From Gemmatimonadaceae bacterium (GTDB lineage: Bacteria > Gemmatimonadota > Gemmatimonadetes > Gemmatimonadales > Gemmatimonadaceae), in NCBI GenBank assembly GCA_036003045.1, contig DASYSS010000032.1:1-64000 (forward strand): 64,000 nucleotides of DNA. The letters run 5' to 3'. A program made the translations under genes and the position numbers. Below the pieces are notes generated by a model. The model ran no database searches, was not told where the DNA came from, and worked only from the letters and a program-made list of their open reading frames with translations. Shown here in pieces: positions 30,453 through 64,000 of the stretch; the first letter of the stretch is position 1; each line of letters begins with the position of its first letter.

Positions 30453-30456
<4 letters not shown>
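29185..30456 (+). CDS. DUF4105 (Lnb N-terminal-like) membrane protein
   Basis: 423 residues. The N-terminal signal ends near PRPDMLHVPGHEVT. The DUF4105 part shows VWEMFGHTAIRV, VFNWGAFDMSKPHFILHFLQG and LEYWYDYFVDNCATRPRDIL, containing the family's FGH, NWG and D-N-C residues, which suggest a thiol hydrolase or transferase-like site. Four or more C-terminal membrane helices follow (about 268-410). Probably acts on the periplasmic face of the inner membrane. The stop overlaps by four bases the stop of the convergent permease. Confidence 0.85.
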
Positions 30457-32918
<2,462 letters not shown>

Positions 32919-48916: not shown

Positions 48917-49157
48917 CGGCGTCACTCCGCGCTCGACGGTTGTTCTCCGACGCGCCCCAGCGACCTCTGATCCGGCCCTTTGCTTCCAATCGACGGAGCG
49001 CCGGGTAGAGCGACCCGTAGTTCACGTCGAGCGCCCCCTTCGACACAACCTGAATGGATTGCGTGAGATCCCAGCCGTTCGCCGGGCTGGCGAGCAACAG
49101 CTTCAACACGATCAGGTCCAGCGTTCCCTGAAGCAGCTCCGCCCTTTGTTCGGCCAT
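48909..49157 (-). CDS. PadR-family transcriptional regulator, short form
   Basis: 82 residues from an ATG with GAGGA before it (a GTG at 49172 is possible). It shows the PadR winged helix: AELLQGTLDLIVLKLLLASPANGWDLTQSIQVVSKGALDVNYGSLYPALRRLEAKGRIRGRWGASENNRRAR. The normal C-terminal dimerisation helix (about 25 more residues, usually starting YY-x-LT-x-AG) is missing: the reading ends SDADV. The stop overlaps the permease start by eight bases (ATGTTTGA). It may dimerise poorly or be decayed. PadR-ADOP pairs are usual in Acidobacteria and Gemmatimonadota. Confidence 0.85.
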   Translation of the reverse strand: MAEQRAELLQGTLDLIVLKLLLASPANGWDLTQSIQVVSKGALDVNYGSLYPALRRLEAKGRIRGRWGASENNRRARSDADV

Positions 49158-49161
49158 TTTT

Positions 49162-49216
49162 CCTCTAGACACTCAATAGGTCGAAGCTCGGCGTTGACCT
49201 CTAGAATGTCAATAGG
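49162..49216. promoter_or_regulatory. 19-bp direct repeat in the PadR leader, candidate operator
   Basis: CCTCTAGACACTCAATAGG (49162-49180) and CCTCTAGAATGTCAATAGG (49198-49216) match at 16 of 19 positions, 36 bases apart. The nearer one overlaps the ribosome site of the PadR gene. Two evenly spaced copies before a PadR start suggest an autoregulatory operator. Read from the minus strand the outer one contains TTGACA, a -35-like box. Confidence 0.5.
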
Positions 49217-49623: not shown

Positions 49624-50802
49624 TCACTCGGAGTAGTCCACCGGGAGCTCGTGAGCCGGGTCGTTGTACAAGATGGCGACCAACGGAATGCCGGGCTCGG
49701 CGACTGCGTCCGAGCGACGAGCCATGACCTCGCCGGCCACCCCGCTCGTGTATTCCGCCACTATTTCGCCAAACGCATTGCGCTGGATGGCGACCTTCTG
49801 CCCGACTTTGACCTTGTCATTCAGCTTGACCAGAAGCTCGACGAATCCGCCATGAGTCGTCAGGATCGTGTGCCCGCTGTTGCCAATGAAGATGTCCGTA
49901 TTCCGCCCGGTGCGACCCATCTGACCGGAGATGATCCCGTGGTGCTTGAGCACATTCATCGTGCCTTCCACGAACAAGGGAATCATGTTGAGGTCCAGGA
50001 TGCGTGAAGCGCCAATCTCGGGCGTGAGTGCGGGAATGCCCGCATCGATGAATGCGTTTGCGAGCAAAGTGGGATAGGCGGCATTGTCGAAGATCTGGTC
50101 GATCGGAAAGAGTTCCGCCATCGCCCGCACCTCGGGCAACTCCATTCGGGCAAGATTGAACGCCGTCACATCCATACCTGTCGTCCCCGTATGAAAATCG
50201 AGGGCGTAATCGGCGTTCGGTTTGAAGAGTCGGTTGAACAGGATCCCAGCATGCCGGCTGGCGGCACTGGCGCCATTCTCGTTTCCGGGCCATTCGCGAT
50301 TGATGTCGACGAGGTCGATTCCTCGTCCTGAATTCGGCCACCTGCGCGCCATGCCTTCCAGGGCCGGACGGGATACGTCAGGGACCGCCAGCACCGTGCC
50401 CGACATCTGAGCCGGATCGAGCCGGCCCATGACGGTTTGTATGGTGTGCACCGGACTGATCTCATCGCCGTGCACACCGCCGGTCAGAGCGATGCGTTTG
50501 CCCGGCTTCGTCCCCACGGCGACCATCACCGACACGTACCAGTGGTGCCCCGTGGGCATTTGCACACCTTCGAAATAGAACGCGTGCGTCTTGCCACGTT
50601 CCAGATCATTCACGTCAAGAGCACTGATGACTTTCTTCCCGTGGATCACATCGCCGGTGTAGACCGTCGTTTGTGACTTTTTGGTGCCCTGAGCTCTCGC
50701 AGCGCCGGCCGTGCCCGCAAGAACAGCCGACGTGCCAACCAGGCCGATGGCTGCCATCATGAAGTCGCGTCGATCGATGCCTTCTTTGTGCTCGGACCGC
50801 AT
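49624..50802 (-). CDS. Tat-exported succinylglutamate desuccinylase/aspartoacylase family protein
   Basis: 392 residues. The N terminus DRRDFMMAAIGLVGTSAVLAGTAGAARA is a twin-arginine signal. The M14-type zinc site is visible: ALTGGVHGDEISPVHTIQTVMG (His and Glu), VDINREWPGNENGAS and DFHTGTTGMD (His), with a later Glu in TPEIGASRI as in aspartoacylases. The C-terminal part is a beta domain (IFIGNSGHTILTTHGGFVELLVKLNDKVKVGQKVAI). It would hydrolyse an N-acyl amino acid or similar amide in the periplasm. AAGGAG lies eight bases before the ATG. Confidence 0.92.
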   Translation of the reverse strand: MRSEHKEGIDRRDFMMAAIGLVGTSAVLAGTAGAARAQGTKKSQTTVYTGDVIHGKKVISALDVNDLERGKTHAFYFEGVQMPTGHHWYVSVMVAVGTKPGKRIALTGGVHGDEISPVHTIQTVMGRLDPAQMSGTVLAVPDVSRPALEGMARRWPNSGRGIDLVDINREWPGNENGASAASRHAGILFNRLFKPNADYALDFHTGTTGMDVTAFNLARMELPEVRAMAELFPIDQIFDNAAYPTLLANAFIDAGIPALTPEIGASRILDLNMIPLFVEGTMNVLKHHGIISGQMGRTGRNTDIFIGNSGHTILTTHGGFVELLVKLNDKVKVGQKVAIQRNAFGEIVAEYTSGVAGEVMARRSDAVAEPGIPLVAILYNDPAHELPVDYSE

Positions 50803-51015
50803 GGTGAAAGCTCCTTACGCTTTGCATGAGTCAGGAAAGCGTAGGCGCTGCATTGACGGGCAGCTATTGGCCGTAGGTTGACCGCCGTCGTGCGGACGGA
50901 ACTGTCCGACATCCGGCTGGAATTCAGGCGGCGTGTGGCACGGGTCCACGCTCCAACGGCTCACCAAAGAGTAAGCGACCCTGAAGCCCCCGCCCCTCAC
51001 TGGGGTGGACATCGG

Positions 51016-51029
51016 ATGTAATTTTACAT
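51016..51029. promoter_or_regulatory. AT-rich inverted repeat upstream of lipoprotein gene
   Basis: ATGTAA-TT-TTACAT, a perfect 6-2-6 inverted repeat, 12 bases before the ATG of the lipoprotein at 51042. In this GC-rich DNA an AT-rich palindrome at that place suggests an operator or a leader fold over the start region. Confidence 0.35.
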
Positions 51030-51041
51030 TACGATGTTTTC

Positions 51042-51506
51042 ATGAGCGGGCGACGCCGTCCGGCCGACTCCAGACTCGGAGGGCCGTTGAGGGTCCCGCC
51101 GCTTGCTTGTGCGCTGCTCATCGCGGCCGTTGCCTGCGATGGAGGCAACGTAGTTCCATCCGGCGCATCGCTCGGCGGGACTTGGACGCTCCGCGCCATC
51201 AACCACGCGGCGCTGCCGTACGCGCTTCCTCAATCGCCCAACGGCTATCCCACGACGATCCTCGGCGCCATCCTCACCATCTCCGGAAGCGACTCTGGTT
51301 CGTACCTGGACGTCATCGCCGCTCGCGTAGTCACTCCCATGAGGACCATCGATACGTCGCTGACGTACTCGGGCACCTGGGTTTTCAGCGGCGGCTCGAT
51401 CACGTTCAACGACAATATCGTTGGCGACGTTTATCAGGCTTCAGTGGTCAACGACACGATCGTGAAGCCCGTGTTGTTCGGGTACTACGGCGAATATTCC
51501 CGATAG
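51042..51506 (+). CDS. small secreted lipoprotein, unknown
   Basis: 154 residues from MSGRRRPADSRLGG; the signal PPLACALLIAAVAC includes a lipobox (AVAC). The mature part has GASLGGTWTLRAINHAALPYALPQ, a block typical of a small beta-barrel-like lipoprotein family seen elsewhere in this group (and like the DGEW-type protein at 3397). A sandwich of strands follows (ILTISGSDSGSYLDVIAAR, GTWVFSGGSITFND). Function unknown. Confidence 0.75.
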   Translation: MSGRRRPADSRLGGPLRVPPLACALLIAAVACDGGNVVPSGASLGGTWTLRAINHAALPYALPQSPNGYPTTILGAILTISGSDSGSYLDVIAARVVTPMRTIDTSLTYSGTWVFSGGSITFNDNIVGDVYQASVVNDTIVKPVLFGYYGEYSR

Positions 51507-51677
51507 CCTCTCAACGCGAGGCCGGAGGTTCGGCCACCGCCCGACGGGCGGTTGCTCTCCTACTCGTTGACGCGCGACTTCAGTTCCGAGCTTCATGTGG
51601 TGACGCCAGACAGAACCGATTCGCGGATGCTCCCCGGTTCTAGGACGTTCGACTACCTCGCCGTATGGAGACCTTGA
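51507..51677 (+). pseudogene. C-terminal fragment of a PD40-type protein
   Basis: Directly after the TAG of the lipoprotein and in the same frame, 56 codons read as ...PPPDGRLLSYSLTRDFSSEL... RTFDYLAVWRP, which has the PD40 strand pattern (PDGRLLSYS). It has no start. Probably the tail of a lost kinase-like PD40 protein (compare the gene at 22305). The remaining bases to 51793 hold only a 40-residue open reading from 51665 that I cannot identify. Confidence 0.45.
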
Positions 51678-51793
51678 CTCAGGTTCTCCAATCGTGGCGG
51701 GACGGCCCCCATTCGCTCTCTTTGTGGTCAATTCGCTGGTTGAAGCACGACGGAAACCGATTGCTCGTCGACATGCCGCACCGTTAAGGCTCT

Positions 51794-54700
51794 TCAATCG
51801 GCACCAACGAGCTGGAACGCCGCCCAATACCGCGGATTCGACCAGGCTTTGTGCAGCTTATCCGTTCGGACGGCCTGCTGCGCGCGTTGTAGGGCCAGGG
51901 CCTTTGAGGGCTTGTCCGTGTCGGAGAGCCAGTGGCGATAAAACGCAGTCATGAGCGCATTTGTCGCCTCGTCATCGACGCTCCACAGGCTGCCGATCAC
52001 GCTGAGAGCACCTTTGGCGAGAAATGCACGTTGCAATCCGAGGACGCCCTCCGCGGCGTTGAAGTCGCCAAAACCCGTTTGACACGCGCTCAGCACGACC
52101 AGATCCGCCTCGGTATGGATCGCGCGTTCGTCGACCAGCTCGGACACGGTCAACACGCCGTCTCCCGCGGATCCCGCGTTCCGTGACGCCGCGAGCGCGA
52201 CAAACGATTTCCGTGAGTCCGATGGATTCGCGAATGCGACGCCGTGAGTCGCGAGATGTATGACGGTCGCGGTACTCATGCGCGCGCGGAGCTCTTGTTC
52301 GGAAGCCTGCCGTCCCACGAGGGGCTGGACGCCGAACAACCCGGCAATCGTGCGTGCCTCGGACTCCGCGCTATCCAGTGGGCCTAGCGAGAAGCCGTCG
52401 AGCGCTTTCGGAAGTGTTGGTGCGCCGAGGACCAACGCCGAACGGCGCCAGGCGAGGCTGTCGCGATACGGCGTGCCGCGCCCGTCGAGCAGGCTAAGAG
52501 CCGGCTGTCGCCACCGGCGCGGCGAAATCATGGCTCCTGTATTCGCAAATTCGATCTCCGCTACCGCCGCAAGAGATGGCCCGTACCGAATCGCAAAACG
52601 AGCGCCGAGCGGCTGCGTGTCGCGCGGCACGGTCAGCGCCGCGAAGGGAACTACCCCAAGGATTCCGTGGGGGATGACCACGAGCTCGCCTGTCGGCGAC
52701 AACACGCGCGCGATCTCCGCTGGCAGGAGCACATTGCTCAACGCGCCAAGCGCCGCGCGAAGCTTCACGGAATCGCCGACCAAACCAGCGACGAGTCCTC
52801 GGGCTCTTTCTTTCGTCTCGGGGCGCGTCCCAGCTCGCGTGAGAATCCCATCGACACCGAGCTGGTCGCGCACCGCGCGTACGAGACCGGCTATCGAGTC
52901 ACGACGGACTCTGCGCGGCGGCGCCGCGGCAATCTCATACGCCCCGTTGCGATAGGACTTCAGCCAGACGACCAAGGTATCGTCGGCGAGCAAGTACGAC
53001 AGCACCTGCGCTTCCAATCCGCCGGCCCCGAGCAGCCTCTCACCCTCGACGGCAAGCCCCGCGTCGTCGACGTTCGTATCCGGCATCACCGATGAGATCT
53101 GTATCATCGAGTCACGGCGCACTCCATTCAACGAGGCGAATCGCTGAATGAGGGAATCATTGTCGGCCTGAGTGGTCTGACGGATATCCTGGAGCACCTG
53201 TCCGCGACCGCGATCCGCGAGCGCCAGCGCGATCAGCATGCTCGGCCGCATCCCGAGGCGCGGCGCCTCGGTGAGGAGCGCAAGCGACCAGTGCTCGTAC
53301 ACCTGCTCGAGACGTGAAGCCAGAGCAATGCGATTGGATTCGGAGGGGCTACCCCGCATGAGCGCCGCCAGAACGTGCGTTGCGCGCTGATACTCGTCCG
53401 AGGCCTGATCCACACTCGTAGCACGCTGGCGGTCGGCATCGGCGACCAGTAGCCGAGCCTCCTCCATGGGATCGCCGCGGTCGTGCGCTGCTTGAATCGA
53501 ATCGGCGCGTGAGCGTTGGACTGTCACGCTCGACGATGCGCCCGCGATGATCTGGCCGCCGCTTCTGCGGGCAAGGTCCGCGAAAAACGCCGCGGAATCC
53601 GAGCGTTGAATCTGATCGTACAATCGGCTGATCTGCGTGTAGTCACGTGCGGCGGCGGTGTCGACGTGCGCGCGCTGCCAAATCGCGCTCGCCCATCCGC
53701 GGTATTGAATCGCGCTGTCGATGCGCGAGCGGGCTCGCAACTCGAGATCAGCAACCACCTCGAGCATGCGGGCGACCGCAATGCGATCAGGGATCGGTCC
53801 CTGAGCGGCCGAGAAGGCGGCCTGCACCACGGTGTTCGCCGAATCGAGGCAGCCCGAGCGGAGCAATATCGTGGCCCACGACGTGAGATGCTCTCGCGGC
53901 GCCGACGTGGACACTGCGCGAGAAAACATTGCCGCCGCCGAGTCGTCGCGACCCAGCTGAGCATACAACCGCCCGACGAGAGACATGCGGGTGTCTGCCT
54001 CGGACTTGTCGTGCGGCGGGATCTGCATGCTTCGGTCGAGGACGGATCGAAGTAGCGTGCGCGCGACAGAGGGCTGACCGGCCGCCGACAGGGCATCGGC
54101 CAGCTCGAGTTCGCGGGCCATCGCCGTGGACTCCTCCCCCACTGCGGCGGCGTGGCCGACGCTCGCCTGTAGCGACGTCACCGCGGAGTCGGGCCGCCCG
54201 ACTGCGCGCCACAGGAACGACAGCTGTTCCTCGAGATTGCCGGCCAAGCGTGCGTCGCCCTTCTGCCGCGCCAGCGCGGTGGCGCTTCGGAGCACGACGA
54301 CGGCCGAGTCCAGGCGGTCGTTGGAAGCGTGGAGCGAGGCGATCTGCGTCAGGATCTCGGCGGCCAGAGCTGTATCGCCGCCACGAATCGCCTGGGTTGA
54401 AAGCGGCAGCAACGCGCCGATCAGCGGCGCCCCGTTCTTATCTCGAGGGGGCGCTAGGAGTGCGCGCGTCCGTCTCGCGCGCGCGGCGACGCCAATCGCA
54501 TTTCCGCGCGCCGCGACCGCGGCAGCCGAATCGACGAGTCGAACTACACTTGCGAGCTTGACAGAGTCCGTCGCCACCGCTCCTTCGACGGCGGCCATTC
54601 GCATCAATGTTCGCGCCAGGCCCGCGCCGTCGTTCGCGTGCAGGCGGAGAGTATGCGCGGCGCGCAACGTCTGCCGCGCGGAGTCGAGCATCGCGGAGTC

Positions 54701-57202
54701 GACGGTGAACTTCGTGATGCGCGCCTGGAAGATGGCGGCGACGGCGTCGAGCAGCCGCGCAGCGTTCGACGTGTCCCCGCTCGCGGCCAGACGGAGGGCC
54801 ATGCGATGAAGATTTGGGACGCTGGATGGGACGCCGAACAGGCTAGAGAAGCTGGCGTCGAGTGCGTCGTCCCAAGGAATCAGCGTTTCGAGTTGCGAAG
54901 CCAGGTTCGGAGGCAGCGATGCCAAGGCCTCCGCGTAGTCCGGCTCATCGAACGCCAGGCGCGAGGCCCGTGTGTAGGCGCTGTGCCGCTCAGCGGCATT
55001 GCTTGGTAGCAGCTTGCCGAGCGCCACGAGAGCACGCGCTTCGGCCGCTCGATCGCCCAGCTGCTTCGCAAGCCGCGAACGCTGGCGTGCGTTGGCGAGC
55101 ACCGAGTCGTCATCCGATGTGACCTCTGCCAACGCCTCGAGCGCCCTGTATTCGGTACTGCGCGCGCTGCTGCGCGCGCTAAGATCGGCAGATGTGGCCA
55201 AGGCCCGGGCTGCACCGGCACGCCACGTGTCCGCCTGCTTCTCACGCCAATCGTTGGCGCGCTCGGCCCGCGCAAGGCCCAATCCGAGGAGCAGCCGCGC
55301 GGCCGCGAGGGTATCACTCGCCTTCAGCGCGGCGGCCGCGGCGAACTCCTGGGCGGCAAACGCCGAATCTCGTGTCGGCGCAATCAGTCGCCGCAGTACG
55401 CTATCGCGAACGTGTTGCGACAAACTGTCGGTCATTCGCAAGAGATCAGAAAACAACCGATAGGCTGTCGTGCTATATGCGCGAAGCGAATCCGATGGCG
55501 TGATAGCGCGCCGGAGCGGCGTTACGTCGTCAACGACGGGTGTCGCCGGCAGGCGGCATGCGGCAACCGGCGCCGCTTGGGGAGTTGCTCGCGAAGGCTG
55601 GGCACGGGACGTGGCCGCTGCAATCGCCGCCGTGGGCTTCGCCACCGATGGTCCAAGCGCGACGGCATAGTCCGCGAGCAAGTCCGCGAGGACGATGTGG
55701 ACGTTCGGCAACATCCGATCAAACGGAACGCCGACGAGGGCCGTGTCGCGCACGATGATGATGGTGCCGGTGTCCGGAACGAACGGCGCGATCGTCGCCG
55801 GAATGAACCGGCGACGGAGCGAGTCAGGCTGAGACGACGGAGCGGACGGCGGCGCTGAAAAGCCAACGGTTTCCTCGAGCAGGTCGCCCGAGCGCGAAAT
55901 CAAGAATACGGCGAGGCTGTCGCGGACGCGCCGATACGCGAGCGCCGTTTGGCCTCGCGACTGAATCCGATCGATGATCTCAGACGAGGCCCCGGACAAC
56001 TCTTCCGCGCCGATAATGCGGTCGCTACAGGGGCGAGGATATACGCGAATATCAACGTACGGGTGGCCTAGCCGGCGGCCGCCGGCCGCGTTCAGCGAGT
56101 CGAGCGTCGCGTGCCTCACCGTCGCTTCTTTGGCGATCATCGCCGCGCCGACCGCCCGTTCACGCCCGAGGACCGGCATGGCTCGCAGATACGCGCGCGT
56201 GGTTTCGTCACCGAGTTCGCGAACTGTGAGCAGAGCCGGGAAAGGGGGGATCTGGTCGACTTGGTCGGCGGGCGGACCCCGGCCCGAGTCGGCAACCTCA
56301 CTCGCCGCGCCGTCGATCAGCCGCATCACCGTGGTGTCAGGTGTTCGCACCTCGAGAGCGGCCAGATACACCGCGTCGCGCGCGCGCTGTGCATCGGCCG
56401 CGCAGGAAAGGCCACTGTAGTAGACGTCTGATCGGCCCGGATGCGACCAATAAAAAAGCGCAGAGTCGGCTCGTCCCAAGGCGAAGTGCCCCGCGCCGAT
56501 GCCTATGGCTGCATAGGCGCGCAAGCGGGGATCGAGCGAATCGCGCGACGCCCACATCGACCGGTAGTCGGCCAGCGCTAGGCTCCAATCGCCGTCCACG
56601 GCGCGCAGCTTTGCTCGCGCGAATGTGGCAGGCGCGGTCATACTCCAGAATGCGACGCGCGAGCGGGCACGTTCGGCCGCGTGGGCCATCTTCAGCGCCT
56701 CGTCGAGCGCGGCGACCGCGGAGTCACGCCGTCCGCGGCTCGCCAGCTGAGCGGCGAACTTTCGAAAATAGACGAATCCTGTATCTGCGGCCGGCCAGGT
56801 TCCCAGTACCGAGTCGCCACCAGCGAGGCCCAGCTCCGCAGCGCGCAAGGCATGCGCACCGGCATTCCCAAGGTCACCTGCAGCGCCGAGCCGCCGCGCC
56901 AATTGAAACTCAACACGGCCGGTGTAGGCGCGGAGCTGCGCTACGGATCGGTCGCCGATGGAAAGCGCGAAGTTGACGGCGGCGTCGGCGAGAGAAACGG
57001 CCGTGTCCAACTTGCCGGCCATCATCGCGTCGACCGATGCCCGACGAAGCGTGTCGAGCCGCAGTACTTGCGCGAGCGTGGGCGAACGAGCGCCACTCGG
57101 CCGCTGCGCCGCGGCGCCGCTGGAAACGGCGAGCACGCAGATGCAAACGAGCGAGAGAGCTGCGCCCGCGAAACGAGCCCGAACCATCGACGGCGTTCTC
57201 AT
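51794..57202 (-). CDS. giant TPR-CHAT protein with an extra degenerate CHAT half
   Basis: 1802 residues. A signal peptide (MVRARFAGAALSLVCICVLAVSSGAAAQ) suggests export. Layout: TPR-like helices about 40-340; a CHAT-like half about 430-525 (VPDTGTIIIVRDTALVGVPFD, ADYAVALGPSVAKPT) that lacks the catalytic part; a second TPR array about 560-1480; a full CHAT domain about 1520-1802 with His1653 (VIHLATHGVAF) and Cys1707 (LVVLSACQTGFG), and GELVVIPHGILGVVPFAALT. CHAT is a caspase-like peptidase. The ATG overlaps the stop of the gene before it (ATGA), so it is the last gene of the caspase operon. Confidence 0.95.
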   Translation of the reverse strand: MRTPSMVRARFAGAALSLVCICVLAVSSGAAAQRPSGARSPTLAQVLRLDTLRRASVDAMMAGKLDTAVSLADAAVNFALSIGDRSVAQLRAYTGRVEFQLARRLGAAGDLGNAGAHALRAAELGLAGGDSVLGTWPAADTGFVYFRKFAAQLASRGRRDSAVAALDEALKMAHAAERARSRVAFWSMTAPATFARAKLRAVDGDWSLALADYRSMWASRDSLDPRLRAYAAIGIGAGHFALGRADSALFYWSHPGRSDVYYSGLSCAADAQRARDAVYLAALEVRTPDTTVMRLIDGAASEVADSGRGPPADQVDQIPPFPALLTVRELGDETTRAYLRAMPVLGRERAVGAAMIAKEATVRHATLDSLNAAGGRRLGHPYVDIRVYPRPCSDRIIGAEELSGASSEIIDRIQSRGQTALAYRRVRDSLAVFLISRSGDLLEETVGFSAPPSAPSSQPDSLRRRFIPATIAPFVPDTGTIIIVRDTALVGVPFDRMLPNVHIVLADLLADYAVALGPSVAKPTAAIAAATSRAQPSRATPQAAPVAACRLPATPVVDDVTPLRRAITPSDSLRAYSTTAYRLFSDLLRMTDSLSQHVRDSVLRRLIAPTRDSAFAAQEFAAAAALKASDTLAAARLLLGLGLARAERANDWREKQADTWRAGAARALATSADLSARSSARSTEYRALEALAEVTSDDDSVLANARQRSRLAKQLGDRAAEARALVALGKLLPSNAAERHSAYTRASRLAFDEPDYAEALASLPPNLASQLETLIPWDDALDASFSSLFGVPSSVPNLHRMALRLAASGDTSNAARLLDAVAAIFQARITKFTVDSAMLDSARQTLRAAHTLRLHANDGAGLARTLMRMAAVEGAVATDSVKLASVVRLVDSAAAVAARGNAIGVAARARRTRALLAPPRDKNGAPLIGALLPLSTQAIRGGDTALAAEILTQIASLHASNDRLDSAVVVLRSATALARQKGDARLAGNLEEQLSFLWRAVGRPDSAVTSLQASVGHAAAVGEESTAMARELELADALSAAGQPSVARTLLRSVLDRSMQIPPHDKSEADTRMSLVGRLYAQLGRDDSAAAMFSRAVSTSAPREHLTSWATILLRSGCLDSANTVVQAAFSAAQGPIPDRIAVARMLEVVADLELRARSRIDSAIQYRGWASAIWQRAHVDTAAARDYTQISRLYDQIQRSDSAAFFADLARRSGGQIIAGASSSVTVQRSRADSIQAAHDRGDPMEEARLLVADADRQRATSVDQASDEYQRATHVLAALMRGSPSESNRIALASRLEQVYEHWSLALLTEAPRLGMRPSMLIALALADRGRGQVLQDIRQTTQADNDSLIQRFASLNGVRRDSMIQISSVMPDTNVDDAGLAVEGERLLGAGGLEAQVLSYLLADDTLVVWLKSYRNGAYEIAAAPPRRVRRDSIAGLVRAVRDQLGVDGILTRAGTRPETKERARGLVAGLVGDSVKLRAALGALSNVLLPAEIARVLSPTGELVVIPHGILGVVPFAALTVPRDTQPLGARFAIRYGPSLAAVAEIEFANTGAMISPRRWRQPALSLLDGRGTPYRDSLAWRRSALVLGAPTLPKALDGFSLGPLDSAESEARTIAGLFGVQPLVGRQASEQELRARMSTATVIHLATHGVAFANPSDSRKSFVALAASRNAGSAGDGVLTVSELVDERAIHTEADLVVLSACQTGFGDFNAAEGVLGLQRAFLAKGALSVIGSLWSVDDEATNALMTAFYRHWLSDTDKPSKALALQRAQQAVRTDKLHKAWSNPRYWAAFQLVGAD

Positions 57203-60200
57203 CGTGCTCCTACGAGCTGAAACGCCGCCCAGTAGCGTGGTTGCTCGAACTGTTTCTTTTGCCGCACATCGCTCTGCGCCCGGCGGAGCGCCTCCGATTT
57301 AGAGGGAGAGTCACGATCGTCGAGCCAATGTGAATAGAACTGTCGCATGAGCAGCGCGGTCGCGTCGTCCGAGACATTCCAAAGGCTGACCAGCACGCTT
57401 TGCGCGCCTCGCGCGATGAATGCGCGTTGAAGTCCGATCGTCCCCTCAGCCTGCGCCAAATTCCCGAGGCCCGTTTGGCACGCGCTGAGCACGACGAGGT
57501 CGGCGTGGAGCCGGGGCAACGAATCGAGGATCTTGGTGATCGTGAGCAAACCATCATCCGCGGCCCGCGGTGACAAGGCAATGAAGCTGTCGCGCTCGTG
57601 CGCGTCGGAGCTGTAGGCGTAGCCGTGCGTGGCGAAATGGATGATGGGCACGGAGTCGGTGATCACCCCGCGAAGCGCTGCGAGGTTGGCATCCGGACCG
57701 GTGAGAAGTCGTGTCGTCTTGAGGCGCGCGGCGAGCCACCTGCCTTCTGCACCGGCTCCGTCAAGCGCCGGAAGTCGGACTCGATTCCCGGAGGAATCGG
57801 TGACGACCGGCATGCGAGGATTCGCTACGACGATCGAGCGCGAGAGCCATGACGCGTCAGCTCTGCCTTCGCCGGACCCCGGCCCCTCGGCAATCGCGGC
57901 GAGTGTCGTGAGCGACGGCGCATATCGAATCGCAAAGCGCTCGCCGAGCGGCATTCCATCCGGAGTCGACAATGCCGCGAAGGGAACCGCCGATAGCGGT
58001 CCGTGCGGGACGATCAGCAATTCGCCGGCAGGTGGTAGCTCGGCCAACACCTCGGGCGGGAGAAGGTAGGTTCGCAGTTCCGAAAGCACCGCCGTTGAAA
58101 CGGCGGGGCGGTTGCCGCGCGCGTGCAAGCCCCGCTGAGTGTCGGGCGCTGAATCGGCAGCATCGCGCTTCTCGAGCACTAGTCCGCGAGACCCCGCTCC
58201 ATCGGTCTGGAGCCCGTCGCGCAACTCTGCGACCAGCGTCGACAGCGAATCCCAGCCAATACGCCTCACGTGCGCCGTGACCGAATCGCGATCTCGAAGC
58301 ACCCAAATGACAAGGGTGTCGTAGGTACTGTGGTAAGCGAGGGTCGTCGTCCCCGGCAATGATGTGGCGCGAAGCACAGCGGCCCCCTCACTGAGAAGAT
58401 CGCCGCCGGCTTGCACTACGTTGGCTTCGTTCTGCGCGCGCTCGCGCACCAAACGGAGGAGTGCCTGTGACCGGCTTCGCTCGCTGACGGCGAGCGCCCG
58501 CAACGCGGCTTCGCGCGTGATCGCCCCATCGGCAGCTATGTTCAGCGTGGCGGAGACCCAGGCGTCATACGTGGTGGAGTTCTGCTCGGCGATTCGCACG
58601 CGTTCGACGTCGCGCTTGAACACTCGAGCGATGCGACCGCCGATCGCGATGGAGGAGTCATAGTACTGACCCGCGAGATCCAGCCGCCGAGGCGACGCGG
58701 CCACCTGGTACCATCGACCCAACATTCGAAGCGCATCGGCCTCATCGCCGAGGCTGCTCTCCTCCCGGGCGGCGCGAACCCCAGCTTCAAGTAGAATCTT
58801 CGCGGAGTCCCGTCCCATGTCGGTATATAAGTCACCAAGCATGCTGTAATACCGGGACAGGCTGCGCTCCTTTGCGCGCTTCGCGGTCTCGAGCGCATCG
58901 ATGTAAACGAGGCGCGCCGTGTCGGGCTTGTTTTGCGCTTCGAGGGCGGCTCCGAGATTCGTGAGCGCCGTTGCGACGAGATCGGGCGAGCCGCGACGCG
59001 CGACATCAACCGCCCGTCGAAGGTAAACGGCGGCCGTATCGGGCTCGCCCCAGTAGTTGGTGTACACGATGCCGAGGCCGTTCAGCGCCCGCGCCTCGAC
59101 GGGTTGATCGCCTCCCATTCGCGCCAGCTTGAGCGCCAGGCGATACTGTTCGTCGGCCTCCAATTCTCGGTCTACATCCTCGAGGACGTCGGCGAGGTCG
59201 GCGCGGTCGTGCGCCTCGGCGAGGTGATATCCAGTCCGGTGTTCGAGGTCGACTGCGCGCCGTAGTATCGCGATCGTCGAATCGTATTTCGGATACGAGC
59301 GATATACGTCCGCGAGATACGCGAGCGTCAAGGCCTCAGACTTGGTATTGCCGGCGCGGTGTCGCGCATCGGCCGCCGCGCGATAGTACGGGACCGCCGA
59401 ATCCGCGGTGTGTTCGTAGTCGCCGAACGTGGTGGCGATGTTGGACAAATACTGTCCCTCATCACCCGCGTTTCGGCGGAGCCGAGCGAGCGCGAACGCT
59501 TCGCGGAACGTTGCCCGTGCGCCGGAGAAATCGCCGCGCGCGCGCCTGGCGAGACCCACGACGTTCAACAGGTAATCCTCCGCTGCCGAATCGTGGCGCG
59601 CTCGCAGTTTCGCCAACAGGGCCGGATAGCGCTCGATAACCGCATCGGGGCGATTGGCATCTCCATACGCCGCGAGCACGGCGTAGGCCACCAGATCCGC
59701 CCGAAGGGTGTCCTTCGCTGCGTTTGCCGCCGAATCGGCACGAGCGAAGTTCGCGAGGGCCGAGTCTAGACTCCCCGCGTTGCCGTAGAATCGGCCAAGA
59801 GAATACCAGCCGAGCGCAGCGTACTTCGCGGTCCGAGAAAGGAGTGGAACAGACTGGCGAAAGTAGTACAGCGCGGAGTCGGGGCTGTGCGCATCGACAA
59901 ACGCGTCGCCGATGTTATTGACGAATATTCCTTCGTTCGTCGAATCATCTGTCGCGTGGCTAAGTGCCGCGGCGCGGCGATAGTACATGACCGCCGAATC
60001 CGGACGACCTGTCCGCACGGCGATGCGCCCGAGATTGTTGGCCGCACTCGCTTGTCCCGAGAAATAGTGCGCGTTTTCGTAGATGGCGAGCGCTCGGTGA
60101 TACACTACGCTCGCCTGTTTGAACCCCGCCGCGTCGGCGCGATTGAACGCTGAATCCGCGCGGCGCAGCAGCCGGCGCGCCTCGGCGGTGTCGGCCTCGG

Positions 60201-60249
60201 GGGTTTGCACGGCGATGGCCGTCGCGAGAAGAACTCCTGCGATCAGCAT
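57199..60249 (-). CDS. TPR-CHAT caspase-like protein, predicted exported
   Basis: 1016 residues. Signal-like N terminus (MLIAGVLLATAIAVQTPEAD). TPR helices fill about 20-560 with regular units such as ASAANNLGRIAVRTGRPDSAVMYYRRA and ALTNLGAALEAQNKPDTARLVYIDALE. The C-terminal CHAT domain (about 700-1016) has GELLIVPHGPLSAVPFAAL, the His in IIHFATHGYAYSSD (H875) and Cys in VVLSACQTGLG (C924), and ends PRYWAAFQLVGAR. The last 100 residues are nearly the same as those of the giant protein (57202 gene), so they are paralogues. It starts 43 bases after the outer-membrane gene and overlaps the next gene by ATGA. Confidence 0.95.
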   Translation of the reverse strand: MLIAGVLLATAIAVQTPEADTAEARRLLRRADSAFNRADAAGFKQASVVYHRALAIYENAHYFSGQASAANNLGRIAVRTGRPDSAVMYYRRAAALSHATDDSTNEGIFVNNIGDAFVDAHSPDSALYYFRQSVPLLSRTAKYAALGWYSLGRFYGNAGSLDSALANFARADSAANAAKDTLRADLVAYAVLAAYGDANRPDAVIERYPALLAKLRARHDSAAEDYLLNVVGLARRARGDFSGARATFREAFALARLRRNAGDEGQYLSNIATTFGDYEHTADSAVPYYRAAADARHRAGNTKSEALTLAYLADVYRSYPKYDSTIAILRRAVDLEHRTGYHLAEAHDRADLADVLEDVDRELEADEQYRLALKLARMGGDQPVEARALNGLGIVYTNYWGEPDTAAVYLRRAVDVARRGSPDLVATALTNLGAALEAQNKPDTARLVYIDALETAKRAKERSLSRYYSMLGDLYTDMGRDSAKILLEAGVRAAREESSLGDEADALRMLGRWYQVAASPRRLDLAGQYYDSSIAIGGRIARVFKRDVERVRIAEQNSTTYDAWVSATLNIAADGAITREAALRALAVSERSRSQALLRLVRERAQNEANVVQAGGDLLSEGAAVLRATSLPGTTTLAYHSTYDTLVIWVLRDRDSVTAHVRRIGWDSLSTLVAELRDGLQTDGAGSRGLVLEKRDAADSAPDTQRGLHARGNRPAVSTAVLSELRTYLLPPEVLAELPPAGELLIVPHGPLSAVPFAALSTPDGMPLGERFAIRYAPSLTTLAAIAEGPGSGEGRADASWLSRSIVVANPRMPVVTDSSGNRVRLPALDGAGAEGRWLAARLKTTRLLTGPDANLAALRGVITDSVPIIHFATHGYAYSSDAHERDSFIALSPRAADDGLLTITKILDSLPRLHADLVVLSACQTGLGNLAQAEGTIGLQRAFIARGAQSVLVSLWNVSDDATALLMRQFYSHWLDDRDSPSKSEALRRAQSDVRQKKQFEQPRYWAAFQLVGAR

Positions 60250-60291
60250 GGACCCTCTGTAGTGACACCGCAGGGCCAGCCACCGACGTGA

Positions 60292-61800
60292 TCAACCGCC
60301 GATGCTCAACCCCCAGAAAAACGCGGGACGATACGCAGGATTGCCGTTCTGTATCGCCTGCCTGATGACTGGGTCCTTCGTGAGGATCCCAGACACAACT
60401 CCGGAAGGCAGGCGTTGGATGCGCTGCCACACCGCGCCACTGTTGAGCCGAATTGCATCCGAGAACTGCCAGCTCAAACCCGTATACCAGTCGGGACGAT
60501 GGCTCGCTCCGAGTCCGGCTCCCAACACCGCGCCGACGGGCACCGGCGTTTTTCGCCAGTCCAAATGCAGCAGAACCGACGCCGCGCTGCGTTGATCCGG
60601 AGACGTCACGTCAGCGACGGTGTCGCCGTGCATCGCGTAGCCTTTCGGCGGCTCCATCAACGAGAGCCCAATGGCAAGCTTGCATGTCCAGTTCGGCGTC
60701 GGATCGGTGATCGCGTCGACGCTCCCCTGGCGCAGACGGGGCACATCGGTGAACTGTTTCGTCGGCGTCAGCGCAATGGTGAGACGTCGAAAGTCCCCGC
60801 TCGGAGCGACGGTGAACCGCTGCGTGGTGGCCGCGCGCGCTTGTTCGATCTGGTGGAGTTGGCCTTGCAGGGTGCGATAGCCCCGGCGCAGATCGGAGAG
60901 CGCTGAGTCGGCGCGGGTCCTGAGGCGCTTTGCCGCGGCGGAATCGCTGCTCGTCTTGGAATCTGCCATCACTTGGCCCGCCTTGGCTGCGAGCGGAACT
61001 GCGGCGGTACGCGCCTGCTGGTATGCCGCGCCGACATCGGCCGCGGTCTTCACGTTCGGAAGTTGACTCGAGACCCACGTATGCAGCCGGCCCAGCAGGA
61101 GCTCGGCGTCAGTCGTTTCGCCGAGTTCCGCGATTACCCCGAGCGAGTCATCCGTCGATCGCGATAGCGCCATGACCGAGGCGCTCTGGGCGGCAAACTG
61201 TGTCACCAAGACATCGAGATCGGATAATTCTCGGGAGACATCGGCGTCTCCCCGGCCCACGAACCCCGTGGGTGCTGCGAGCGACTCCGTGGTGAGCGTT
61301 TGCCGGAGAATCGTGTCGAGACTTATCTTCGACGCGGCAATCCCGGCGAGTCCCAGGGTCTGAATCTGCAAACTGATGTTGGTGAACGTGCCCAAGACGT
61401 TGCGGCACGTGCGCACCTTTCGCTCCTGCACCGTCGTAACGGTCGCGTCATAGTCATACAGGAGCGGGTTGGCGTGAACGACCTCGATCTGGAGTGGGCG
61501 GTCGGCGGGTAGGGGTATGAGCGGCGTTTCGGACGTGTCGCTGGTGGCGAACGTTGCGCGCTCCACCCCGCCCTGATCGAACACGGTCACTCGGCCCGCC
61601 ACATGATCGAACCGCGCCGTCCATGGTTTGGCACCGGAAACGGTGCGAATCGGACGCGAGCGCATCACCGTCGGCGCTGCTGGTGCGGGCGCGGGCGCCG
61701 GCGCTGGTTGGCCGCTCTGAGTAGGCGTCGTCGGCTTTTGCGCCGCGAGTGTCGCCGGCAGAGCGCCCAGGGAGACCAGTATTAGAGATCGTCGTGTCAT
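60292..61800 (-). CDS. predicted outer-membrane protein of the caspase operon
   Basis: 502 residues from MTRRSLILVSLGALPATLAAQ, a signal peptide; longer upstream readings are shadows of the caspase gene. A Pro/Ala-rich linker (QPAPAPAPAPAAP) follows, then a helical middle (about 150-335, including a long coiled-coil-like stretch RLRTRADSALSDLRRGYRTLQ). The C-terminal 160 residues have barrel-like strands (VPVGAVLGAGLGASHRPDWYTGLSWQFSDAIRL) and end FFWGLSIGG, as in outer-membrane proteins. No family is recognised. The ATG overlaps the caspase stop (ATGA), so it is coupled to the protease. Confidence 0.8.
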   Translation of the reverse strand: MTRRSLILVSLGALPATLAAQKPTTPTQSGQPAPAPAPAPAAPTVMRSRPIRTVSGAKPWTARFDHVAGRVTVFDQGGVERATFATSDTSETPLIPLPADRPLQIEVVHANPLLYDYDATVTTVQERKVRTCRNVLGTFTNISLQIQTLGLAGIAASKISLDTILRQTLTTESLAAPTGFVGRGDADVSRELSDLDVLVTQFAAQSASVMALSRSTDDSLGVIAELGETTDAELLLGRLHTWVSSQLPNVKTAADVGAAYQQARTAAVPLAAKAGQVMADSKTSSDSAAAKRLRTRADSALSDLRRGYRTLQGQLHQIEQARAATTQRFTVAPSGDFRRLTIALTPTKQFTDVPRLRQGSVDAITDPTPNWTCKLAIGLSLMEPPKGYAMHGDTVADVTSPDQRSAASVLLHLDWRKTPVPVGAVLGAGLGASHRPDWYTGLSWQFSDAIRLNSGAVWQRIQRLPSGVVSGILTKDPVIRQAIQNGNPAYRPAFFWGLSIGG

Positions 61801-63788
61801 TGGCGCGCGGGTAGGATGAGAATCGAGCGTGTCGTGGCGCCCCAGCCTTTGATCGCGGATCGTGAAGGCGGCCCGAGCCCTCGGCTTACTTCCTTCGCGC
61901 CGCACTGAGGCAGCGCCGCGGCCAGTGACTGAAGCGAGTATTGCTTGTCCGCCGCGACAACTTTGATTTGTTCCAACCCGTGCGGCTCCGTCACGCTGAA
62001 GTTGCGGTAGATCGCCTGCCAGCCGGCGGTAGGGAAGGTCCCAGCCGACGACGGCGCCGGGTAGAGAACGGTCGGATCGCCAAGGTACCCCGCGATCGCA
62101 ACGGTCAAGTAGAGAGTCGACCAATCGGGGACATGGGCGCGCACCCACAGCGTGTACGATTGACCGATAAACGCGGTGTCCAAAGCCGTGTAAGGGGCGA
62201 ATTCGCTCGGCACGGTGTCGCCCGCGACGAGCCGCACGTCTATTGGAGGCATCATCGCGGGATTCTCGATGAGCGACAGGGCGCTGATCATGTATGCCCG
62301 CGTCAACGCCCCGCATATCGCGGCCGCGGTCGGCGCGAAGCCAGTATCGGCCCCGGCGACGACCTGCGTCGACGCATCGAGGGGCTTGATCTCGGCGGCG
62401 TGCGCGAAGACCCGCACGGTGCCATTGCGCGCGGCGAGCACGACGTCCGCCGTCGCCCGGTCAGCGGTCTGGCTAACGACACGGGCGGCCGGGAACTGGC
62501 GAACGATCGTTGAGATCGCCGGATCGTCCGGCGGGGCAAACACGCTAATCGTCGTGAGCCGTCGCACCCCGTACGGAACGATGGACAAGATCGCGCGCGC
62601 GCCGCGGGGAATCGGCGACGTACGGGCATCGACGCGCCTCCCAAAACCCTGGAACCGTGTCACAGAGTCGATCTCAATGCGGCCGTACGGCGGTTCTCCT
62701 CTGAACGTCGTCTCGCCGGCGCCGAACACGTCATATTGCGCCGACGGCCGAACTCCGTTCACCGCCCCCGCGTCGATCCCGACGGTTGTATCGCTGAGCG
62801 GCGTAATCGCGACCACCTGCTGGGCCGGCACGGGTTCGCTCACGTGGAACAGCAATGCTGAGTGATCGCCCTCGAGCTGTGGATCCTGGTGAGGGACCGA
62901 CCCCTGAAGCGACGCGAGGCCCTCCTCGACGTGCCGCATCAGGTCGTCGTAGTGCGTCCCCTCGTTGGCCGCGTCCAGCGCTTCTGTGAAGTAGTATGTC
63001 AAAATGCCAAACGCCGTCCGCTTTCCGTCGCCGGTCGCGAACTCCCACTCGCCGGCGGTCTGGTTGGAGGCGGCGGCCGTAAGGAGTACCTGCCGCGGCA
63101 AGAGCCCGTCGAGCCCACTCGATGGCTTCGCGGGTGTGGCCACGCCGGCGGGGGGAAGACTCCCGCGAGGCCGGTACGACGCCAGGCCGCCCCGGGTGAT
63201 GGTACCCGAATAGCAGGCGTCGACGACGATCGTGACATTGGCAGAACGCAAACGACCGAGCCATTGTCCGATTTGATCGTCGATGATCAGCTGGTTCGGG
63301 TCATGTATGGAGCCTGTATCTCCCTTCACGTCCCACGGTACGAGGGCCTCGTCATAGTGGTCGTTGGGGTCGATCTTCGCTTCGTCGCCATCCAGGTCCG
63401 GCGCCGAGCTACCGTGCCCGGAGTAATAGATGAAGACGACATCTCCGGTGTCTACTCGGGCGTCCAGCCACTCGAACGCCGACGTGATGCCCTGGCGTGT
63501 GGCCTGCGAGTCGCGCAGGACCGTCATATCGGGGCCCGCGCGAAATCCCCATTTACTCAGGGCACGTTCGACACGCGGAAGGTCGTTCGCCACGGGAGCG
63601 TGGAGCTTCGATCGGCCGGGCGGCCCGCCCTCGGCGAAGTTCTTGTAATCGGAAATACCAATCAGGAGGGCCACATGCCGCCGCGCGTCGTTGGGGGCGA
63701 CGACGTTGCGTCGAACGCTCGCCACGCCGCTCGGCCGAAGCGCGAGTGTCGCGATACCGACGGCGAGGAACAGCGGGCGAAGCGTCAT
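61797..63788 (-). CDS. exported caspase-family (C14) protease with DUF4384-like tail
   Basis: 663 residues from MTLRPLFLAVGIATLALRPSG, a signal-like start preferred over the frame up to 63872. The caspase p20 domain (about 40-325) shows RRHVALLIGISDYKNF, the catalytic His in VFIYYSGHGSSAPD (H125) and Cys in VTIVVDACYSGTI (C192). The following part (about 340-520) is beta-rich and unknown. The C-terminal 120 residues resemble DUF4384 (YLTVAIAGYLGDPTVLYPAPSS, FSVTEPHGLEQIKVVAADKQY), the usual companion of bacterial caspases. It is the first gene of a four-gene operon. Confidence 0.94.
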   Translation of the reverse strand: MTLRPLFLAVGIATLALRPSGVASVRRNVVAPNDARRHVALLIGISDYKNFAEGGPPGRSKLHAPVANDLPRVERALSKWGFRAGPDMTVLRDSQATRQGITSAFEWLDARVDTGDVVFIYYSGHGSSAPDLDGDEAKIDPNDHYDEALVPWDVKGDTGSIHDPNQLIIDDQIGQWLGRLRSANVTIVVDACYSGTITRGGLASYRPRGSLPPAGVATPAKPSSGLDGLLPRQVLLTAAASNQTAGEWEFATGDGKRTAFGILTYYFTEALDAANEGTHYDDLMRHVEEGLASLQGSVPHQDPQLEGDHSALLFHVSEPVPAQQVVAITPLSDTTVGIDAGAVNGVRPSAQYDVFGAGETTFRGEPPYGRIEIDSVTRFQGFGRRVDARTSPIPRGARAILSIVPYGVRRLTTISVFAPPDDPAISTIVRQFPAARVVSQTADRATADVVLAARNGTVRVFAHAAEIKPLDASTQVVAGADTGFAPTAAAICGALTRAYMISALSLIENPAMMPPIDVRLVAGDTVPSEFAPYTALDTAFIGQSYTLWVRAHVPDWSTLYLTVAIAGYLGDPTVLYPAPSSAGTFPTAGWQAIYRNFSVTEPHGLEQIKVVAADKQYSLQSLAAALPQCGAKEVSRGLGPPSRSAIKGWGATTRSILILPARQ

Positions 63789-64000
63789 TGCGCGACTCGC
63801 GGACGTTTGGGCCGGCGGCAAATCTTGCGCTCGGGCAACGCGCGATTCTATCGCCGGCCCTGCGAATGTCAATGCCGGCCCCGACTGTTGCGCGGCCCGG
63901 TAGTGAAGCCCACATTAGCATCCCCTCGTTGCCGACACCGCATGCCACGACGCCGGCTCTCTGCGCCTGGAATGTCGAAGGTGCACGCTCCTATCGCGCG

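What the first reader, a model, noticed from the sequence alone, without database searches (positions are those of the whole stretch)
51794..63788. Four-gene operon combining a caspase, a barrel-like protein and two TPR-CHAT proteases
Seen: caspase (H125/C192), an outer-membrane-like protein and two TPR-CHAT proteins (H875/C924 and H1653/C1707) in one compact minus-strand unit with two ATGA overlaps and a 43-base gap. Known: C14 caspases and CHAT are related cysteine-peptidase folds and TPR-CHAT acts as an activated protease in some defence systems. Inference: a proteolytic cascade or regulated cell-death/envelope-sensing system. I do not know of a described system with this exact set.
Basis: partly seen in the sequence, partly recalled or inferred. 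Interest (0 to 1): 0.75.

Follow-up and report, generated by a model that had tools for sequence, protein, structure and literature searches.

The report
Exported caspase–barrel–TPR-CHAT protease operon
A bacterium of the phylum Gemmatimonadota carries four co-directed genes for a caspase-like protease, a new outer-membrane-like partner protein and two caspase-related TPR-CHAT proteins, most of which look exported, suggesting a proteolytic system that works in the cell envelope rather than inside the cell.

Summary
Four real genes (caspase, barrel-like protein, TPR-CHAT1, TPR-CHAT2) form one minus-strand unit with two ATGA overlaps, a 42-base gap (not 43), one promoter-like site just upstream, and all six stated catalytic residues. 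The genome is Gemmatimonadota. Three things were added. (1) At least three of the four proteins have signal-peptide-like N-termini, so the set should act in the envelope, unlike cytosolic Craspase or STAND systems. (2) The barrel protein founds a small family with no Pfam, PADLOC or NCBIfam hit. All four full-length members sit next to a caspase homologous over its whole length; in G307 (another bacterial family) an exported TPR-CHAT flanks the same pair. (3) In 295 genomes of the phylum, 23 of 120 caspases lie within 10 kb of a CHAT gene against 0.6 expected, though this count mixes several architectures. The exact four-gene order was seen only here; caspase+barrel is the core and CHAT a recurring partner. 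Best reading: an envelope caspase/CHAT proteolytic module with an outer-membrane-like partner. The direction of any cascade, and whether it ends in surface-protein processing or lysis, is not shown. Anti-phage defence is not supported.

The parts
63845..63872 (-). sigma70-like promoter TTGACA-N16-TAGAAT, about 56 bases before the caspase ATG
   Evidence: 11 of 12 consensus positions; only such site on this strand in 50800-64000
61797..63788 (-). CASP1: exported-looking caspase (signal-like N-terminus, metacaspase-type p20/p10, C-terminal DUF4384-like region by alignment only), 663 aa
62868..63680 (-). Peptidase_C14 domain of CASP1 with H125 and C192
60292..61800 (-). BARREL: new family, signal peptide, N-terminal beta domain, helical bundle, C-terminal outer-membrane-barrel-like strands, 502 aa; ATGA overlap with CASP1
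61435..61623 (-). N-terminal beta domain (aa 60-122) with the conserved motif NPLLYDY (residues 111-117) that marks the family
60832..61245 (-). helical bundle (aa 186-323)
60295..60828 (-). C-terminal beta domain (aa 325-502); weak matches mostly to outer-membrane barrels
   Evidence: low model confidence
57199..60249 (-). TPR-CHAT1, 1016 aa, H875/C924; hydrophobic N-terminus without a charged n-region
57205..58092 (-). CHAT domain of TPR-CHAT1
51794..57202 (-). TPR-CHAT2, 1802 aa, signal peptide, H1653/C1707; ATGA overlap with TPR-CHAT1
51800..52756 (-). CHAT domain of TPR-CHAT2

Best explanation
An exported, envelope-located proteolytic module. The caspase is a metacaspase-type, Arg/Lys-directed and probably calcium-responsive protease. 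The barrel-like protein is its dedicated partner: an outer-membrane-anchored scaffold whose periplasmic N-terminal beta domain and helical bundle hold, present or restrain the protease. The two TPR-CHAT proteins are further cysteine peptidases of the same clan that use their TPR arrays to dock on partners or substrates. Most likely sequence of events (inferred): a change in the envelope (damage, Ca2+ entry, misfolded or foreign surface protein) activates the caspase, which cleaves itself and then the CHAT proteins and/or the barrel, leading to processing of surface proteins or, when strong, loss of envelope integrity. Shown: gene structure, active-site residues, recurrence of caspase+barrel and of the trio. 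Supported by heuristics only: export and outer-membrane location. Inferred: order of activation, trigger, output.
For: Operon structure and promoter. Signal-like N-termini of CASP1, BARREL and CHAT2 by a home-made rule, and of CHAT relatives in G019, G037, G113, G256, G307 and two of the three in G020 C4. CASP1 is closest among solved structures to yeast metacaspase-1 and T. brucei MCA2 (E 1.9e-7 and 3.3e-6). Mapped on MCA2: catalytic H158=H125 and C213=C192, the Asp two before the Cys (D211=D190), and three of the four published Ca-site Asp (D173=D146, D189=D170, D190=D171; the fourth, D220, is R199) (site from PMC4357240). All these are invariant in eight full-length homologues. BARREL family: window, G052, JAOUHR010000135 (L063) and G307 all have this caspase type adjacent. 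In G307 two contigs share an exact 121-base end overlap inside the caspase gene, giving TPR-CHAT<- ->caspase->barrel. Caspase-CHAT proximity in the phylum: 23 of 120 caspases within 10 kb of a CHAT against 0.61 expected. Both window CHATs fall in one clade (support 0.996) of mostly signal-peptide-bearing TPR-CHATs that includes the tandem pair of G019. A distant fifth barrel relative in G317 is ATGA-coupled to an HExxH, weakly M36-like protein, followed by a TPR protein, so the family pairs with protease-like genes.
Against: No SignalP-class predictor was available. CHAT1 has no positively charged n-region and failed my rule. The barrel models have low confidence (pLDDT 60 and 49) and Foldseek matches to OmpA-like barrels are not significant (E 0.057, 0.025). 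The exact four-gene order is unique so far, and the barrel family is rare (3 full-length hits in 395 genomes including this one, plus 1 distant). CHAT is not next to the barrel in G052 or L063 (L063 is a short contig). The phylum-wide caspase-CHAT enrichment includes cytosolic STAND systems and a sigma-factor type. No cleavage site or substrate is demonstrated.
Confidence: 0.5

Rival explanations
1. Surface-protein maturation: like the secreted clan-CD enzymes gingipain and PorU, the caspase and CHATs trim or attach proteins at the outer membrane next to a barrel partner, as a housekeeping function without cell death.
For: Export signals and an outer-membrane-like partner; clan CD includes secreted processing proteases (PMC4357240); related operons in G011, G137 and G052 hold several caspases with PPC domains, typical of extracellular proteins.
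Against: No surface substrate or T9SS-type sorting domain was searched for; the TPR-CHAT pair is not explained.
Confidence: 0.22
2. Anti-phage or abortive-infection defence system with caspase and CHAT as effectors.
For: CHAT and caspase are effectors in known conflict systems; PADLOC hits 'caspase' and 'TPR'; other caspase-CHAT loci in the phylum do carry nSTAND1/WD40 switches.
Against: Exported-looking proteins; no NTPase switch, nucleic-acid sensor or CRISPR part in the operon; the scanned window neighbours are ordinary (histidine kinase, acyl-CoA dehydrogenase, homoserine dehydrogenase, MacB permeases, Na/H exchanger); Csx29 model 21.7 of 300 bits; no barrel on 72,556 plasmids or 50,697 phages.
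Confidence: 0.1
3. Periplasmic death switch: envelope damage activates the caspase, which frees the barrel or CHATs to lyse the cell.
For: Metacaspases are tied to death in other organisms; three of four Ca-site Asp kept; every one of eight homologues has Arg-Gly in the p20-p10 linker, a candidate self-cleavage site.
Against: Arg-Gly is common by chance in high-GC genomes; no pore-former identified; nothing shows toxicity.
Confidence: 0.12
4. Chance neighbours: functionally unrelated exported proteins that happen to share an operon.
For: The full order is seen once; CHAT relatives in G019, G037 and G011 have no caspase among the genes read next to them.
Against: Four of four full-length barrel genes adjoin a homologous caspase and one of the three relatives also has TPR-CHAT; two ATGA couplings.
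Confidence: 0.06

Closest known systems
Type I metacaspases / bacterial orthocaspases (Peptidase C14B)
   Same: p20/p10 with H/C dyad, Asp two positions before the Cys, three of four Ca-site Asp
   Different: Exported-looking, extra C-terminal DUF4384-like region, recurrent barrel-like neighbour; fourth Ca Asp is Arg
Craspase (type III-E CRISPR Cas7-11 with TPR-CHAT Csx29)
   Same: TPR array fused to a C-terminal CHAT protease
   Different: No Cas7-11 or CRISPR part; Csx29 model far below cut-off; belongs to a clade of mostly signal-peptide-bearing proteins
STAND-coupled caspase/CHAT and EACC1 conflict systems (PMC7159879, PMC8195603)
   Same: Caspase and CHAT genes side by side, or caspase effectors
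   Different: Those use NTPase switches and cytosolic effectors; relatives of that kind (G263, G373) were seen in this phylum and are distinct
Gingipain/PorU (C25) surface proteases
   Same: Clan CD proteases working at the outer membrane
   Different: Different family; the resemblance is a recalled functional analogy, not tested

Membership tests
Type I metacaspase / orthocaspase | His-Cys catalytic dyad in a p20 domain | tested here: met
   H125/C192, Pfam C14 E 9.6e-19; invariant in 8 homologues
Type I metacaspase / orthocaspase | S1 Asp associated with Arg/Lys specificity | tested here: met
   D211 of MCA2 aligns with D190; specificity itself not assayed
Type I metacaspase / orthocaspase | Ca site of four Asp (D173, D189, D190, D220) | tested here: inconclusive
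   three kept, D220 is R199
Craspase TPR-CHAT (Csx29) | scores above the NCBIfam Csx29 cut-off | tested here: not met
   21.7 bits against 300
Craspase TPR-CHAT (Csx29) | adjacent Cas7-11/gRAMP | tested here: not met
   no such gene among the operon and flanking genes read and scanned
EACC1-type caspase conflict system | caspase model NF047832 above cut-off | tested here: not met
   CASP1 36.7 bits against 140; second caspase 75.1
STAND-coupled caspase/CHAT system | adjacent STAND NTPase | tested here: not met
   no NTPase in the operon or adjoining genes scanned
Bacterial gasdermin system | gasdermin gene next to the protease | tested here: inconclusive
   barrel has no hit in Pfam, PADLOC or NCBIfam; whether each library holds a gasdermin model was not checked
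Outer-membrane beta-barrel proteins | closed transmembrane beta-barrel | tested here: inconclusive
   low-confidence model; weak OmpA-like matches; amphipathic alternation reached by 14 of 500 shuffles
TPR-CHAT proteins | TPR repeats plus C-terminal CHAT with His/Cys | tested here: met
   TPR only below cut-off in CHAT2

The most novel reading that the evidence does not exclude
A new kind of envelope protease cascade: an exported metacaspase held by a dedicated outer-membrane partner family that switches on exported TPR-CHAT proteases, i.e. caspase-type signalling moved to the periplasm.
Probability: 0.25. Interest if true: 0.85.

Novelty: new variant of a known kind. Interest (0 to 1): 0.55.

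Why it matters
Bacterial caspase and CHAT systems that have been studied work inside the cell. An exported set with its own conserved outer-membrane-like partner would extend caspase-type proteolysis to the bacterial envelope, and it offers a small, testable gene set and a protein family without annotation.

Tried and rejected
The search of relatives with TPR-CHAT2 failed on the server and was not repeated. Empty-site comparison: neither flanking gene has a close orthologue in the five congeners, so insertion versus loss cannot be told. Papers on CHAT with periplasm, on Gemmatimonadota caspases and on DUF4384 gave nothing on such an operon; most subscription papers are not in the library. Matches in G122, G130 and G213 to the barrel were partial: the ORFs in G122 and G213 are unrelated, and the G130 match has five stops inside. 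Matches of the helical bundle to solved structures are generic bundles and were discarded. The phylum-wide enrichment was not used as evidence for this architecture alone because it mixes several types.

Full report
Observation. The frames are far longer than chance allows and have coding third-position GC. A promoter-like site, TTGACA-N16-TAGAAT, lies about 56 bases before the caspase start and no other is found on that strand in the unit, which fits a single transcript but does not prove it.

Origin. The window is bases 1-64000 of a 122-kb contig in a 5.4-Mb, 106-contig genome. Named records that hold the barrel family, one of the same length and layout as the contig of the same-order genome G052, are 'Gemmatimonadota/Gemmatimonadetes bacterium' MAGs, so the genome is placed in that phylum by inference. 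The genome has two CHAT proteins, both here.

Surroundings. Upstream of the operon, outside the window, lie a divergent 571-aa stretch without a family, a small OMP_b-brl protein and a second caspase on the minus strand (contig 66414-67688; Pfam E 4.8e-15). The family search of the genome had missed the second caspase. Downstream are an AstE/AspA-type enzyme, a PadR regulator and MacB-type permeases.

The caspase. Among solved structures CASP1 is nearest to yeast metacaspase-1 and T. brucei MCA2. Residue mapping gives H125, C192, D190 (S1) and three of four Ca-site Asp; the fourth is Arg199 (site definition from PMC4357240). An alignment of eight caspases, four of them from barrel or CHAT loci (L063, L080, L044, L079), runs over the full length, including a C-terminal region which in the G052 caspase scores just under the DUF4384 cut-off (25.4 bits, cut-off 27); CASP1 itself has no direct DUF4384 hit. 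All eight keep H125, C192, D190, D146, D170, D171 and R199. Each has at least one Arg-Gly in the p20-p10 linker, a possible self-cleavage site, but this is weak evidence in GC-rich genomes. The 2012 survey PMC3501461 found no intact dyad in its single Gemmatimonadetes sequence; the loci here show intact dyads.

The barrel family. No hit in Pfam, PADLOC or NCBIfam. Full-length relatives: G052 (layout of QHUY01000053), JAOUHR010000135 (L063) and G307 (sequence of JAHECN010000095, L064). All carry a motif like ANPLLYDY. The model shows an N-terminal beta domain, a helical bundle and about six long C-terminal strands. Foldseek's best hits for the whole model and for the C-terminal domain are outer-membrane barrels such as OmpA, but none is significant and confidence is low (pLDDT 60 and 49). 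So 'barrel-like' is a lead, not a result.

Recurrence. In the window the order is caspase-barrel-CHAT1-CHAT2. In L063 it is caspase then barrel on one strand. In G052 the barrel is divergent from a DUF4384-type caspase and overlaps a WD40-caspase downstream. In G307 contig C194 ends inside a caspase gene, and its last 121 bases are identical to the start of contig C67, which continues through the caspase end into the barrel; on C194 an exported-looking 1240-aa TPR-CHAT diverges from the caspase. G113 has the same caspase type divergent from an exported-looking 1614-aa CHAT protein, without a barrel. A profile search of 395 genomes added only one distant relative, in G317, coupled by ATGA to an HExxH protein with a weak M36 score and followed by a TPR protein. 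The family is therefore rare and, in the five loci seen, always beside a protease-like gene.

Phylum-wide test. Among 295 genomes, 69 have a C14 caspase and 95 a CHAT. Of 120 listed caspases, 23 lie within 10 kb of a listed CHAT, expected 0.61 by random placement. The CHAT list was cut by the tool, so the count is a lower bound; the random-placement model ignores shared ancestry. At least three architectures are mixed in it: caspase-CHAT-nSTAND1/WD40 without signal peptides (G263, G373), a TPR-CHAT with a ~310-aa orphan, sigma-like genes and a short caspase (G264, G322, G384, G070, G238), and the exported caspase plus exported TPR-CHAT type of the window (G113, G307, G256).

CHAT tree. Both window CHATs lie in a clade (0.996) with mostly signal-peptide-bearing TPR-CHATs of G019 (a tandem, overlapping pair), G020, G037 and G256; the G113 and G307 proteins come next, weakly supported. 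Loci were partly chosen for having caspases, so the tree does not measure linkage.

Mechanism. Shown: genes, active-site residues, conserved linkage. Heuristic: export (a home-made rule; CHAT1 fails it). Inferred: envelope proteolysis with the barrel as anchor or regulator, activation order, trigger and output. Defence is a weak reading because the proteins look exported, no switch or sensor is present, and the neighbours scanned are ordinary.

Novelty. Each enzyme belongs to a known family, and caspase-CHAT pairs are known. I found no report of an exported caspase with this partner family and exported TPR-CHATs in the papers searched. I class it as a new variant of a known kind.

Noticed in passing
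contig bases 66414-67688 (L004:16414-17688), outside the window: Second exported-looking caspase on the same strand, with an OMP_b-brl protein (L004:15789-16397, +) and a family-less ~571-aa protein between it and the operon.
   Followed up: partly
L073, L074, L075, L076, L077, L082: Recurrent cluster of TPR-CHAT, an orphan ~310-aa protein (motif like SGLCLFVPE, no Pfam) and a short caspase, in some loci with a sigma-70 region-4 protein and a putative anti-sigma, in several genomes of the phylum.
   Followed up: partly
L099:4493-7122: Distant barrel relative ATGA-coupled to an HExxH, weakly M36-like protein, followed by a TPR protein.
   Followed up: partly
L044:8748-11942: WD40-repeat caspase overlapping the G052 barrel gene.
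   Followed up: no
L045, L084: Operon of three caspases with a multi-PPC protein, next to sigma-like and anti-sigma-like genes on the other strand, in two related genomes.
   Followed up: no
window 30453-32918 and 46274-48925: MacB_PCD/FtsX permease genes; the second has a PadR regulator directly upstream (48909-49172).
   Followed up: no
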